This document shows, piece after piece, positions 45,277-56,895 of a stretch of 64,000 nucleotides of DNA. Numbering within the stretch: position 1 is the first letter of the stretch; each line of letters opens with the position of its first letter. A model generated the notes under the pieces. The model saw only the letters and a program-made list of their open reading frames with translations, ran no database searches and was not told the origin of the DNA. The position numbers and the translations under genes are program-made. The stretch comes from Dictyoglomus sp. NZ13-RE01 (GTDB taxonomy: Bacteria; Dictyoglomota; Dictyoglomia; Dictyoglomales; Dictyoglomaceae), in the NCBI GenBank assembly GCA_002878375.1, contig NIRF01000009.1:23404-87403 (forward strand). The letters run 5' to 3'.

Positions 45277-45435
45277 AACATGCAGAAAAAATATTTGTTG
45301 GAAAAACTTTAAAGGAAATGTTGGAACAAGATAAGAAAGATGAGAGATATTACTACTGCCAAAATATTTGAGGACATTCTTGAGGAAGAAGAAGATCATC
45401 ACGATACCTTTACAAGTCTCTTAGAAGAAGTTTAA
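45252..45435 (+). pseudogene. Bacterioferritin/ferritin-like gene remnant
   Basis: One frame reads [14 protein letters not shown], then VGKTLKEMLEQDKKDERYY up to a stop. A shifted frame then reads TAKIFEDILEEEEDHHDTF and a few residues to the stop at 45435. These are pieces of the bacterioferritin helices in order, with internal deletions and a frameshift: KHAEK is helix B, and the Glu-rich ILEEEEDHH is the C-terminal ferroxidase helix. It begins inside the end of icd. Confidence 0.65.
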
Positions 45436-45600
45436 AAATAAATTCAAGCCTATTGTACGTAGACCCATAATTTCTTGTCTTTGGGGGTGGGGTTAATTCC
45501 TTTAATTTCAAAGAGCTTAGATAGAGTTACAAAAAATTTTGTAGAAAGTCTCGTCCTTTCAGGTGGGGATGAATGCAATTATTGAAAATGAGAACCGAAA

Positions 45601-45663
45601 ATGAATACCTACAAATCAACACGACATGCTAAGTTTCTAAAAGACCCTGAAGTAAGAAGGTAG
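45601..45663 (+). pseudogene. tnpA remnant of element 1
   Basis: The 20-codon frame MNTYKSTRHAKFLKDPEVRR begins like IS200-type Y1 transposases (MNxYKxTRHxxxLL) and then stops, because nearly the whole gene has been deleted. The catalytic HUH and Tyr residues are gone, so the element cannot move on its own. Confidence 0.6.
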
Positions 45664-45669
45664 AGGAAG

Positions 45670-46920
45670 ATGGATAAGACATATATTGTGCCAGTTACAG
45701 AAGAGTATCAAAACCTTGCAAAACAACTTTCCCAGCAGTCTGGAAAAATCTACTCCAAAGCTGTAAGTTTTCTGAAACGAATGAATAAAAAAGCCATAAA
45801 GATTTCAAGAAAGACATTTGACAGATACATGGAATGGTGGATACATAAGAAAGGTTTTATACTGCACAGTCAGAGCAAACAGGCGGCATATCAACAAGCA
45901 TGGACAGCATATACTGCAACCCTAAAAAAGGTTAAGAAAACAGAAAAGAAAAATAAAGATGTTTCAAAGATAAGAGTACCATACAAAAGTAAGAAGTACA
46001 ACAAAGTATGTTTTAAAAGCTCAGCGATAAAACAAGAAGGTAGCAATCTAATTTTTTCAAACATGAAAGGAGCAGAAAGGATAGTAATAAAAGTTGAGGA
46101 TTTTGAAGCAAGACCTAAGTATGCAGAACTTATCTACCATAAAGATAAGAACAAGTATTATATGCATGTAGTAGTAGAATTTCCAAAAAAGCAGGTAAAC
46201 TCTGAAAAAGCCCAAACAATTGCAATAGATCTTGGTATAATACATCCGATGACATGCTTTGATGGGAAACGAGTAACAATATACAATGGTGGAATTTTGA
46301 ATTCGCTGATAAGATACAGAAACAAGAAACTTGGGGAGATACAAAACAAACTGTCCAAATGCAAGAAAGGCTCAAAGAGATGGAAAAGACTCCAGAGAGC
46401 CAAGAGAAAAATTTTAAAGAAAATCAGAAATCAAATCAGGGATGTATTGGAAAAATATACATCCCATTTGATAGGGTATTGTGTGAAAAATAACATAGGA
46501 ACAATTGTGATAGGTGATTTAAAAGGTATAAGAAATGAAGCGAAGTATGGGAAGGTAGCAAATCAGAAAATTCATCAATGGATGTTTAGAAAAGTGGCAA
46601 GAAGGATAGGAGAGAAAGCAGGGTTTGTAGGGATAGATATTGTGTATGTAAAGGAGAATGGCACATCACAAGTTTGTCCTGTATGCGGAAGTAAAAACAA
46701 ACCACGAAACAGGAACTATGAATGCGGAGAATGTGGATTTAGGTACCACAGGGACGGAGTTGGGGCTATAAACATCTACAAAAAGTATACAGGGATAAAA
46801 TTCCTGGTAGTAGGGCGATTGGCCTGCCCCACAGGTGTGAGATTCAGATGGCACCTGCGTTGCCCAGTAGAATGGAACACCCATCCGTGGATGAGAAATT
46901 CTGCTGGGAAGACAGCCTGA
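45670..46920 (+). CDS. tnpB: TnpB RNA-guided nuclease with rearranged RuvC site
   Basis: The 416-residue protein has an N-terminal part similar to TnpB/OrfB, a RuvC-I Asp187 (IAIDLGIIHP), a zinc ribbon (CPVC...CGEC) and RuvC-III Asp362 (YHRDGVGAINIYKKY). The usual RuvC-II Glu is missing: the position reads IVIGDLKG with Gly282. A Glu329 appears 47 residues later in YVKENGTSQVCPVCG. This swap is like that described for Fanzor and some TnpB proteins. Its 3' end and the sequence after it probably encode the guide RNA. The protein looks intact. Confidence 0.85.
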   Translation: MDKTYIVPVTEEYQNLAKQLSQQSGKIYSKAVSFLKRMNKKAIKISRKTFDRYMEWWIHKKGFILHSQSKQAAYQQAWTAYTATLKKVKKTEKKNKDVSKIRVPYKSKKYNKVCFKSSAIKQEGSNLIFSNMKGAERIVIKVEDFEARPKYAELIYHKDKNKYYMHVVVEFPKKQVNSEKAQTIAIDLGIIHPMTCFDGKRVTIYNGGILNSLIRYRNKKLGEIQNKLSKCKKGSKRWKRLQRAKRKILKKIRNQIRDVLEKYTSHLIGYCVKNNIGTIVIGDLKGIRNEAKYGKVANQKIHQWMFRKVARRIGEKAGFVGIDIVYVKENGTSQVCPVCGSKNKPRNRNYECGECGFRYHRDGVGAINIYKKYTGIKFLVVGRLACPTGVRFRWHLRCPVEWNTHPWMRNSAGKTA

Positions 46921-46965
46921 ATCGAGCTGTCAGGAATCCTCGTCTCTGTGAGGCAGAGAGGAGGT

Positions 46966-47262
46966 CAAAAACTTATATCCTTGCTTTAATAATTCAGGAA
47001 TAATTATTTCTAAAGTTTGAGGCGTAGGGTGAGGTATATGCATTCAAACATCAGGTTATTCACAGCGAGATTTGGTGGTCGGAAAAATCTTGGTGTTTGC
47101 CCTGTATACTAAATGGTTACCAAATTCACAGCCAAGTCTTTTTGCTCTTTCTAAGATGGGAGCTGAAATATTATACTTTTCTAAAACATCAAGTACTTTG
47201 GGAGTTAGATCTGGGTCAATACTTGGTCCATCGTCAAAGGTTAGCACTACATATTTAGCATT
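46966..47262 (-). pseudogene. Polysaccharide deacetylase (NodB-type) remnant
   Basis: Read leftward, the frame directly after the rlmI-like stop gives AKYVVLTFDDGPSIDPDLTP and VLDVLEKYNISA, the NodB motif 1. It then jumps to PILERAKRLGCEFGNHLV with about 17 residues missing, and soon stops. A shifted piece HPTPQTLEIIIPELLKQGYK is the family's C-terminal end and runs into the right end of element 1. Signal peptide, middle and active-site parts are lost. Confidence 0.7.
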
Positions 47263-54343: not shown

Positions 54344-55942
54344 AGTTTAATATACTCGAAAGGAGTCTCCATCTTCTGTAAGATAGAGATGAATTGCGAT
54401 TGATAAATAATTTGTTTTAGTATACAATAGACCTGGTGATAATTATGAAGTTTGATACTAATAAACATTATATAGAAGAGATGTAATAGATGATAAAATT
54501 TGAAAACTCTGATTAAGTGGAATCACGAGAAAGACTATATTCATGTTCTATTCAAGGCAACTCCTACAACGCCACTTTCTAAGTTCATAAAAGCTAAAAA
54601 TCAAGCAAAAGCTTTGGAAGGAATATTTTTAGTCAAGAAGTTATTGTCTTATCACAAGTGGTGGTGCTTCAGCTGAAGGAGTAAAAAAAGGAAATGTTGA
54701 AAGCATATAAGTATTGTATATGTCCGAACAAAGACCAAATAGAGTTTTTTGAAAAGACCTTTGGTTGTTGCAGATTTGTATGGAACATGATGCTGGAAGA
54801 AAAGCTTGAAGCATTAAGACGGGATAGGAAAATTCCAAGGATAACTCCAGCAAAGTACAAAAGGCAGTATCCTTTTTTAAAAGAAGTTGATAGTCTTGCT
54901 CTTGCAAATGTTCAGCTTCAACAAGAGAAAGCATTTAAGGATCATTTCAATAATCCGAAACATTTTAGCCCTCCGAAGTTCAAGAGGAAGAAAGATGAAC
55001 AGTCATACACGACAAACAATCAGAAAACCAAAAGTGGAAGTGAGACAATCAGGGTAGATTTTGAAAAAGGGCTTTTATATTTACCGAAGATAAAAAGTGC
55101 AATAAAAGCGGAATTTCACAGGAGGTTTGAAGGCAGAATAAAATCAGCAACAGTTGTTAAAACAAAAGCAGGCAGGTATTATGTGAGCATACTTGTAGAT
55201 GTACAGGACCCGAGGAATAAAATTAAAGAACCACAGAATTTTATTTGTGGGATAGATTTAGGGTTGAAAAGTTTTGCAACAGTTGTGAATGATTCAGAGT
55301 GTTTGAAGATTGAATACCCAAGATATCTAATCAAAGCTGAAAAGAAACTGAAAAGGTTACAGAGACAGCTTGCGAGGAAGAAGGAAGGTTCTAAGAATTG
55401 GAAGAAAGCAAGAGAAAGGCTTGCAAAAGAGCATGAATATGTAAAAAATACAAGAGAAGATTTTATGCACAAGATATCGAAAGCCATCATAGACGAGAAT
55501 CAAGTCGTGGTGGTTGAGAGCTTGAATGTAAATGGTTTATCAAGGACAAAGCTTTCGAAGTATGTTCTGGATAGCAGTTTTGCAAGGTTTATAGATTTTC
55601 TAAGGTACAAGGCAGAGTGGTATGGAAGGGAATTAATAGAAGCAGATAGGACATTTCCATCGTCAAAAATGTGCAGTAAATGTGGATACATTTATAAAGA
55701 GCTGAAATTAAGAGATAGAGTATGGAAATGTCCTGAATGTGGAGAAGTTCATGACAGGGACGAGAACGCAGGAAAGAACTTAAGAGACTATGGATATAGA
55801 TGTATAAGAAGTAGTAGGGTGGGGACCACCCGAATTTACGCCTGTGGAGATTGGACCTCTACTGCCATGGATAAAACCATGGTGGCAAGTCTGGCCGATG
55901 AATCAGGAAGCCTACACCTGTTCAAGGTGGATGGTAGTTCAC
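54344..55942 (+). mobile_element. IS200/IS605-type element 2 (broken tnpA plus TnpB)
   Basis: Limits are approximate. The left region has GGAGTCTCCATCTTCTGTAA with a small hairpin (ATCTT/AAGAT). The right end carries CTACACCTGTTCAAGGTGG followed by GTAGTTCAC at 55934-55942, which I take as the element's end. The sequence after it, beginning ATCCATATAAAAGG, belongs to a dehydrogenase gene and would be the guide portion of the element's RNA. Confidence 0.7.
54444..54711 (+). pseudogene. tnpA (Y1 transposase) pseudogene of element 2
   Basis: The start MKFDTNKHYIEEM, stop, matches the tnpA opening MKLDTNxH. A later frame has KTLIKWNHEKDYIHVLFKA and TPTTPLSKFIKAK, the HUH-type segment with the second His kept. 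A third frame has SRSYCLITSGGASAEGVKK, the C-terminal end. Frameshifts and deletions break it several times, so this transposase is dead. Confidence 0.72.
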
Positions 55943-56895
55943 ATCCATATAAAAGGGTTTTGAAGGAGGAGGAGTTAATAAACCTTATTAAGGATGTAGA
56001 TGGGATAATAGTAGGAATAGATCCCATAACAGAGAAGGTTTTGGAGAAGGCGGAAAGACTAAAGGTTATATCTAAGTATGGAGTTGGAGTTGATAACATA
56101 GATCTTGAAACTGCCAAAAAGATGGGAATTATAGTTACAAATACACCAGGTGCAAATAGTAATGCTGTTGCAGAGCTCACATTAGGACTCATTTTTTGTG
56201 TACTTAGAAATATTCATGTATCCGATAGGAAGGCAAGGGAAGGTTTTTGGGGAAGGTTTGTGGGATATGAGCTTTATGGAAAAACTCTGGGAATTATAGG
56301 AACGGGAAGTATAGGGAAGAGATTAGTAAGTCTTTTAAAGGGGTTCAATTTGAATATTCTTTGTTATGATATTTATCCAGATTACTCATGGGCAGAAAGG
56401 GAAAATGTGAAATATGTAAGTATGGAGGAGCTTTTGAAAGGCTCTGATATTATTTCTATTCATGTACCATTAACAAAGGATACCCACCATTTAATATCTA
56501 AGAAGGAAATTAGTCTTATGAAGAATTCTGCCATAATAATTAATACCTCAAGAGGTGGAATTATTGATGAGAATGCTCTTTATGAGGCTTTAAGAGATAA
56601 AAGGATTTTGGGAGCAGGGCTTGATGTTTTTGAAAAAGAGCCTCCTGAAAACTCTCCTCTTCTTTCTTTGGATAATGTTGTTGTTACCACCCATATAGGG
56701 GCTCATACAAAGGAGGCAATAGAGAATATGGCAAGTATAGCTACTGAAAATCTAATTTTAGCTTTAAAAAGGGAAAAGCCTAAATTTATTGTTTTAGAGA
56801 GCATTGAAAAGGATGGTAGAATAGAAATTAAAAAATTTTTTGAAGACCTGGCGCCTAATCATGGATATATCAAAAGAAAAGGAGAGAATAGTTAA
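54694..56895 (+). CDS. tnpB: TnpB read in frame into a 2-hydroxyacid dehydrogenase
   Basis: The 733-codon frame begins with a canonical TnpB (about residues 1-416): RuvC-I Asp188 (CGIDLGLKSFA), RuvC-II Glu275 (VVVESLNVNG), zinc ribbon CSKCGYIY...CPECGEVH, and RuvC-III Asp356 (DRDENAGKNL). No stop codon occurs at the element's right end, so the frame runs on through about 316 residues of a D-2-hydroxyacid dehydrogenase. Most likely the insertion removed the dehydrogenase start and the fusion is accidental. A fused protein could still be made. The TnpB part looks catalytically complete. Confidence 0.8.
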   Translation: MLKAYKYCICPNKDQIEFFEKTFGCCRFVWNMMLEEKLEALRRDRKIPRITPAKYKRQYPFLKEVDSLALANVQLQQEKAFKDHFNNPKHFSPPKFKRKKDEQSYTTNNQKTKSGSETIRVDFEKGLLYLPKIKSAIKAEFHRRFEGRIKSATVVKTKAGRYYVSILVDVQDPRNKIKEPQNFICGIDLGLKSFATVVNDSECLKIEYPRYLIKAEKKLKRLQRQLARKKEGSKNWKKARERLAKEHEYVKNTREDFMHKISKAIIDENQVVVVESLNVNGLSRTKLSKYVLDSSFARFIDFLRYKAEWYGRELIEADRTFPSSKMCSKCGYIYKELKLRDRVWKCPECGEVHDRDENAGKNLRDYGYRCIRSSRVGTTRIYACGDWTSTAMDKTMVASLADESGSLHLFKVDGSSHPYKRVLKEEELINLIKDVDGIIVGIDPITEKVLEKAERLKVISKYGVGVDNIDLETAKKMGIIVTNTPGANSNAVAELTLGLIFCVLRNIHVSDRKAREGFWGRFVGYELYGKTLGIIGTGSIGKRLVSLLKGFNLNILCYDIYPDYSWAERENVKYVSMEELLKGSDIISIHVPLTKDTHHLISKKEISLMKNSAIIINTSRGGIIDENALYEALRDKRILGAGLDVFEKEPPENSPLLSLDNVVVTTHIGAHTKEAIENMASIATENLILALKREKPKFIVLESIEKDGRIEIKKFFEDLAPNHGYIKRKGENS
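55943..56895 (+). pseudogene. D-2-hydroxyacid (3-phosphoglycerate-type) dehydrogenase, 5'-truncated
   Basis: The frame has ELINLIKDVDGIIVGIDPIT, the NAD motif LGIIGTGSIGKRLVSLL, catalytic Arg in NTSRGGIIDE, Glu in DVFEKEPPE and His in THIGAHTKEA, all in order. The first 30 or so residues of a normal protein are missing: the element's right end stands there, and only a few bases separate the element's left end from the RACo-like gene. The missing 5' part was therefore deleted. Without the fused TnpB start there is no obvious initiation codon. Confidence 0.78.

What the first reader, a model, noticed from the sequence alone, without database searches (positions are those of the whole stretch)
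45670..46920. TnpB with Fanzor-like rearranged RuvC catalytic Glu
The RuvC-II position reads IVIGDLKG (Gly282 instead of Glu), and Glu329 stands 47 residues later beside the zinc ribbon (YVKENGTSQVC). A shift of this kind and distance was reported for Fanzor and related TnpB proteins. Asp187 and Asp362 are kept. The nearby second TnpB (54694) is canonical, so both types coexist in one genome.
Basis: partly seen in the sequence, partly recalled or inferred. Interest (0 to 1): 0.7.

Follow-up and report, generated by a model that had tools for sequence, protein, structure and literature searches.

The report
TnpB nuclease with relocated catalytic glutamate
This is a transposon-borne RNA-guided DNA-cutting enzyme (TnpB) whose catalytic glutamate sits about 47 residues further along than usual, a variant already described in 2023 for a large bacterial branch of the family and for the eukaryotic Fanzors, so it is a well-preserved new member rather than a new kind of thing.

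Summary
The ORF at 45670-46920 is an intact 416-aa TnpB with D187, G282 (IVIGDLKG), E329 (KENGTSQVC) and D362. It matches exactly the motif that Yoon et al. 2023 (PMC10711439) used for TnpBs with the alternative glutamate 'Ealt', and belongs to their D-Phi-G + Ealt clade. It is not a pro-Fanzor: the DPG motif and an IS607 context are absent. In 90 TnpBs collected here, 63 have Glu only at the 282 position, 24 only at the 329 position (always with Gly at 282), none at both and 3 at neither. The nearest relatives are multicopy IS200/IS605 elements of Caldicoprobacter (about 68% identity). The element is 45531-46968, inserted 3' of TTAC and ending in TCAA (IS608 signature), with an empty site recognisable in a relative of the host. 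Its 3' end folds strongly as an omegaRNA (z -4.8). tnpA is a 20-codon remnant, and no intact TnpA of this type was found in the genome, so the element looks stranded. Most likely function: omegaRNA-guided nuclease recognising TTAC plus the flanking sequence, using D187/E329/D362. The catalytic role of E329 is inferred, not shown. New member of a known kind; low interest.

The parts
45527..45530 (+). TTAC target tetranucleotide left of the element (predicted TAM; IS608 left cleavage site)
   Evidence: Present before the left end in all 10 Caldicoprobacter full copies; belongs to the target in the empty site of relative G004
45531..46968 (+). Whole insertion sequence, 1438 bp, IS200/IS605 (IS608-like), tnpA eroded
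   Evidence: Flank joint aligns without a break to the uninterrupted deacetylase gene in G004, E 2e-10; ends fixed by multicopy comparison
45545..45548 (+). AAAG, same as the IS608 left guide sequence GL
   Evidence: Read from the sequence; IS608 signatures from PMC5934647
45601..45663 (+). tnpA remnant: MNTYKSTRHAKFL fused to KDPEVRR, then stop
   Evidence: Comparison with the intact 136-aa TnpA of L006
45670..46920 (+). tnpB, 416 aa, intact ORF
46228..46230 (+). Asp187 codon, RuvC-I (DLG)
46513..46515 (+). Gly282 codon at the canonical RuvC-II Glu position
46654..46656 (+). Glu329 codon, alternative catalytic Glu (Ealt), with six residues between it and the first zinc-ribbon Cys
46675..46734 (+). 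Zinc ribbon C336-C339-C352-C355
46753..46755 (+). Asp362 codon, RuvC-III
46800..46968 (+). Predicted omegaRNA scaffold overlapping the 3' end of tnpB and the right end
   Evidence: RNA fold of 46790-46988: -81.4 kcal/mol, z -4.8; stems shared with Caldicoprobacter, with compensatory changes
46938..46964 (+). Right-end hairpin (IPR), preceded by GAAT (46934-46937, IS608 GR) and followed by TCAA (46965-46968, IS608 CR)
   Evidence: DNA fold z -4.05; IS608 signatures
46969..46988 (+). Predicted guide (flanking DNA): AAACTTATATCCTTGCTTTA
   Evidence: First bases after the element end; guide logic from ISDra2 (PMC8612924)

Best explanation
An IS608-like IS200/IS605 element (45531-46968) carries an intact TnpB of the known D-Phi-G + Ealt clade. 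TnpB binds the structured RNA from the 3' end of its own gene and the right end (omegaRNA); the bases just outside the element serve as guide. The complex recognises TTAC followed by the guide sequence, that is, the empty donor site, and cuts it with a RuvC site made of D187, E329 (in place of the usual Glu at 282) and D362. This favours retention of the element. The copy's own tnpA is gone, so it is immobile unless a TnpA acts in trans. Shown by sequence here: the residues, their conservation, the element ends, the empty site, the RNA folding potential, the tnpA loss. Inferred: omegaRNA expression, TAM use, cleavage, and the catalytic role of E329.
For: Exact match to the published Ealt motif. 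Mutually exclusive Glu positions in 87 of 90 TnpBs, with Gly282 in every Ealt protein. G282, E329 and D362 invariant in 14 divergent Ealt proteins. On a tree built without the two trait columns, 13 of 14 Ealt proteins form one group (83/83), and the window protein sits in an all-Ealt set supported 98/95. AlphaFold2 model with mean pLDDT 83: D187 ends strand 182-187, G282 lies in strand 276-283, E329 follows strand 323-328, D362 is at the start of helix 361-374; this is the topology described for the Fanzor Glu (PMC11423790). Fold matches TnpB 8h1j Z 21.0 and Fanzor2 9b0l Z 18.3. dN/dS about 0.15 against Caldicoprobacter. Ends, empty sites and omegaRNA.
Against: No expression or cleavage data. 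The local pLDDT is lower (60-74 per block of ten) from about residue 281 to 310, between the two Glu positions. With tnpA gone and a single copy left, the protein may no longer be used even if it is competent. The left-end hairpin of the window copy looks weak.
Confidence: 0.85

Rival explanations
1. The protein has lost nuclease activity (no Glu at the canonical RuvC-II position) and acts, if at all, as an RNA-guided DNA binder, like TldR proteins.
For: Gly at position 282; tnpA is lost, as can happen in domesticated TnpB derivatives.
Against: E329 is invariant wherever 282 is Gly and absent wherever 282 is Glu; both Asp are kept; the same proteins sit in multicopy, evidently mobile elements in Caldicoprobacter.
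Confidence: 0.05
2. A relic: a stranded, decaying insertion whose nuclease is intact only because it arrived recently; the active-site arrangement is that of its live relatives but nothing acts in this cell. This is compatible with the best explanation of the enzyme itself.
For: tnpA reduced to 20 codons, single copy, no intact Y1 transposase in the genome; no TnpB in six related genomes; weak left-end hairpin.
Against: The tnpB ORF and omegaRNA stems are intact; codon comparison gives dN/dS about 0.15, though most of that divergence may predate arrival.
Confidence: 0.4
3. A pro-Fanzor or close relative of the prokaryotic ancestor of eukaryotic Fanzors.
For: Shared Ealt position; Fanzor2 9b0l among the structural matches, Z 18.3.
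Against: DLG instead of DPG; IS200/IS605 tnpA instead of IS607; non-cyanobacterial relatives; TnpB and Cas12f structures match better (Z about 21).
Confidence: 0.03

Closest known systems
D-Phi-G + Ealt TnpB clade (Yoon et al. 2023, PMC10711439)
   Same: D-Phi-G in RuvC-I, Glu exactly six residues before the first zinc-finger Cys, canonical Glu missing, D after the zinc finger
   Different: Nothing found; this is a new member, in a genome whose close relatives searched here have no TnpB at all
Caldicoprobacter IS200/IS605 elements (L003-L013)
   Same: 68% identical TnpB with the same G/E pair, same TTAC/TCAA ends, same omegaRNA stems
   Different: Caldicoprobacter elements carry an intact 136-aa TnpA (read in L006) and are multicopy; the window copy is single and its tnpA is deleted
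IS608 of Helicobacter pylori
   Same: TTAC and TCAA cleavage sites and AAAG/GAAT guide tetranucleotides (PMC5934647)
   Different: Only the transposon ends were compared; the IS608 TnpB was not examined here
Fanzor / pro-Fanzor
   Same: Glutamate in the alternative position beside the zinc ribbon
   Different: They have DPG and are tied to IS607 or eukaryotic transposons; this one has DLG and an IS200/IS605 setting
ISDra2 TnpB
   Same: Overall fold (Z 21.0), omegaRNA from the 3' end of the gene, TAM equals the transposase target
   Different: ISDra2 TnpB has its catalytic Glu at the canonical position (established knowledge); TAM TTGAT instead of TTAC

Membership tests
TnpB (IS200/IS605 RNA-guided nuclease) | OrfB_IS605 and zinc-ribbon domains over cut-off; NCBIfam guided_TnpB over cut-off | tested here: met
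   PF01385 76.4 bits (cut-off 30.5), PF07282 59.7 (26.3), NF040570 176.4 (100)
TnpB (IS200/IS605 RNA-guided nuclease) | Located in an IS200/IS605 element with defined ends and target site | tested here: met
   Empty site in G004 and a second one for the Caldicoprobacter element; intact IS200-type TnpA in relatives
TnpB (IS200/IS605 RNA-guided nuclease) | Structured omegaRNA at the 3' end of the gene | tested here: met
   z -4.8; conserved stems with two-sided changes; expression not tested
D-Phi-G + Ealt TnpB clade | D{P}G x(120-160) E x6 CxxC x(12-18) CxxC x(4-8) D | tested here: met
   The regular expression matches residues 187-362 (motif)
D-Phi-G + Ealt TnpB clade | Groups with other Ealt TnpBs in a tree | tested here: met
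   Window protein in all-Ealt set 98/95, tree without the trait columns
pro-Fanzor / Fanzor | DPG motif in RuvC-I | tested here: not met
   DLG at 187-189
pro-Fanzor / Fanzor | Association with IS607 TnpA (serine recombinase) | tested here: not met
   tnpA remnant and relatives' TnpA are of the IS200/IS605 type
pro-Fanzor / Fanzor | Place inside the DPG clade in a tree with Fanzors | not tested
   No Fanzor sequences in the collections at hand
RNA-guided nuclease with Glu329 in the active site | Glu329 near Asp187 and Asp362 | tested here: inconclusive
   Position right after the last RuvC strand fits, but atomic distances were not available
RNA-guided nuclease with Glu329 in the active site | Guided cleavage dependent on Glu329 | not testable with these tools
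   Needs biochemistry

The most novel reading that the evidence does not exclude
A stand-alone Ealt TnpB, cut off from its transposase, has been kept by this host as a useful nuclease (for example to guard its locus or act against other elements), and its genome offers a natural side-by-side of the two RuvC active-site layouts.
Probability: 0.07. Interest if true: 0.45.

Novelty: new member of a known kind. Interest (0 to 1): 0.2.

Why it matters
Mainly as a clean representative of the D-Phi-G + Ealt TnpBs, with close relatives in thermophiles. Element ends, predicted TAM (TTAC), guide and omegaRNA are all defined, so it is ready for a direct test of how moving the glutamate changes cleavage and collateral activity. 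The count made here also shows simply that the two Glu positions exclude each other across TnpBs.

Tried and rejected
Chance or frame error for the Gly/Glu pair: rejected by conservation in relatives. Pro-Fanzor membership: rejected on DPG and IS607. A second copy or a trans-acting TnpA in the genome: none found, with the caveat of a 34-contig draft, where repeats can be lost. Collinear flanking genes in congeners: not found, the genes on either side lie at different places; the empty site was found instead through the guide pattern. The pattern search alone was no better than its control; only the flank alignment made the site convincing. Rfam: only a chance match to GIR1 at 15.9 bits. The Altae-Tran 2023 PNAS and Jiang 2023 Science Advances papers are not in the library. 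The structure alignment was limited to window sequences and loci from the search for related loci, as the tool requires. No paper in the library links TnpB or IS605 with Dictyoglomus, which was my unverified guess at the host.

Full report
Observation. The ORF 45670-46920 (+) encodes a 416-aa TnpB. The neighbouring TnpB at 54694 has the canonical Glu.

Is the Gly/Glu pair real? I collected 90 TnpB-family proteins from genomes, plasmids, phages and viral contigs and read the two columns. Glu stands only at the 282 position in 63, only at the 329 position in 24, at both in none, at neither in 3 (Q/R, all from one genome). Every protein with Glu at 329 has Gly at 282. In 14 divergent proteins of this type, G282, K316, E329, S333, the four Cys and D362 are invariant. 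Proteins of the type come from Firmicutes, Deinococcota, Proteobacteria, Thermodesulfobacteriota, Bifidobacterium, a haloarchaeon and phages. The swap is therefore an old, fixed trait. The survey is not random: sequences were found through similarity to the window protein or its relatives, so the proportions are not population frequencies, and 10 of the 24 are the window protein and near-identical Caldicoprobacter copies.

Known or not. Yoon et al. 2023 (PMC10711439) named the two positions Ecan and Ealt. They reported clear separation of Ecan and Ealt in a tree of about 800 representatives, and two Ealt clades, one with D-Phi-G and one with DPG; only the second contains Fanzors and the cyanobacterial IS607 pro-Fanzors. 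The window protein fits their D{P}G-Ealt regular expression. It is thus a D-Phi-G Ealt TnpB. My tree, built without the two trait columns, puts 13 of 14 Ealt proteins together (83/83) and the window protein in an all-Ealt set with 98/95 support; the fourteenth is a very long branch. An earlier smaller tree gave one change for the trait.

Structure. AlphaFold2 on 28 aligned sequences gave mean pLDDT 83.2, pTM 0.63. D187 ends strand 182-187, G282 lies in strand 276-283, E329 comes right after strand 323-328, and D362 is at the start of helix 361-374. For these RuvC nucleases PMC11423790 describes one Asp on a strand, the Glu on the loop between the fifth strand and the zinc-ribbon (TNB) domain, and the last Asp on the helix. 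The fold matches ISDra2 TnpB and AsCas12f (Z about 21) and mimivirus Fanzor2 (Z 18.3).

The element. The closest relatives are 10 full-length copies and a fragment in Caldicoprobacter oshimai and C. algeriensis, 66-69% identical in protein. Their elements are 1.8 kb, with a 136-aa IS200-type TnpA read in L006. Comparing copies fixes the ends: TTAC on the left, TCAA on the right. These are the IS608 cleavage sites, and the IS608 guide tetranucleotides AAAG and GAAT are also present in the window at 45545-45548 and 46934-46937 (PMC5934647). For one C. oshimai copy the empty site is found in C. algeriensis as an exact TTAC + flank joint. For the window copy, the joined flanks align without a break, including TTAC, to a deacetylase gene region in the related genome G004 (E 2e-10), with a weaker match in G005. 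The window element is therefore 45531-46968, 1438 bp, inserted 3' of TTAC without target duplication.

State of the copy. tnpA has suffered two internal deletions and is a 20-codon remnant (45601-45663). The ends occur once in the genome, and the only other Y1 transposase match is a 35-position fragment upstream of the second TnpB. Six related genomes have no match to the TnpB zinc-ribbon family. The element was probably acquired from a thermophilic Firmicute-like source (inference) and is now stranded, unless repeats were lost in the 34-contig assembly.

omegaRNA. The last 170 bases of the element plus guide fold at -81.4 kcal/mol, z -4.8; the Caldicoprobacter counterpart has z -6.85. Four stems are shared. 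Five pairs differ on both sides yet remain paired between window and Caldicoprobacter, three in the RNAalifold consensus; some of the five lie in the right-end hairpin, which is also under selection as DNA for transposition. A 15-nt in-frame insertion in the window copy lies within one stem and is itself mostly paired. With only two clearly different lineages this is supportive, not conclusive.

Mechanism. By analogy with ISDra2 (PMC8612924), the TnpB-omegaRNA complex should cut the donor joint, TTAC followed by AAACTTATATCCTTGCTTTA, and so restore the element by repair from the sister copy. dN/dS of about 0.15 against Caldicoprobacter indicates a protein kept functional over most of that divergence. 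Whether this copy acts today cannot be told from sequence.

Verdict. The class is already published. Coexistence with a canonical TnpB is also seen in another genome (G016). Interest is low to modest.

Noticed in passing
54694-56895: The canonical TnpB reads in frame through its right end (..GGTAGTTCAC near 55943) into a D-2-hydroxyacid dehydrogenase, giving one 733-aa ORF; relatives have the dehydrogenase but no TnpB. Its tnpA is also a remnant (54506-54610).
   Followed up: partly
46969-47247: Remnant of a polysaccharide-deacetylase-like gene on the minus strand (LTFDDGPS), interrupted by the element; bases corresponding to about 130 positions of the G004 region are also missing.
   Followed up: partly
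45333-45431: Short remnant resembling the C-terminus of a ferritin-like protein; similar DNA occurs in three related genomes.
   Followed up: no
L036, L038, L042 (genome G016): TnpB-like proteins with Gln and Arg at the two Glu positions (neither Glu), forming their own branch; possibly nuclease-dead TnpB derivatives.
   Followed up: no
window, about 46888-46904: A 15-nt in-frame insertion relative to Caldicoprobacter (about residues 407-411) lies in a predicted omegaRNA stem and lengthens it, so protein tail and RNA changed together.
   Followed up: partly
45670-46920, residues 10-370: A PADLOC model named Csx1 (PDLC01039) matches this TnpB at 4e-45, which suggests that the model is built from TnpB-like proteins.
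   Followed up: no
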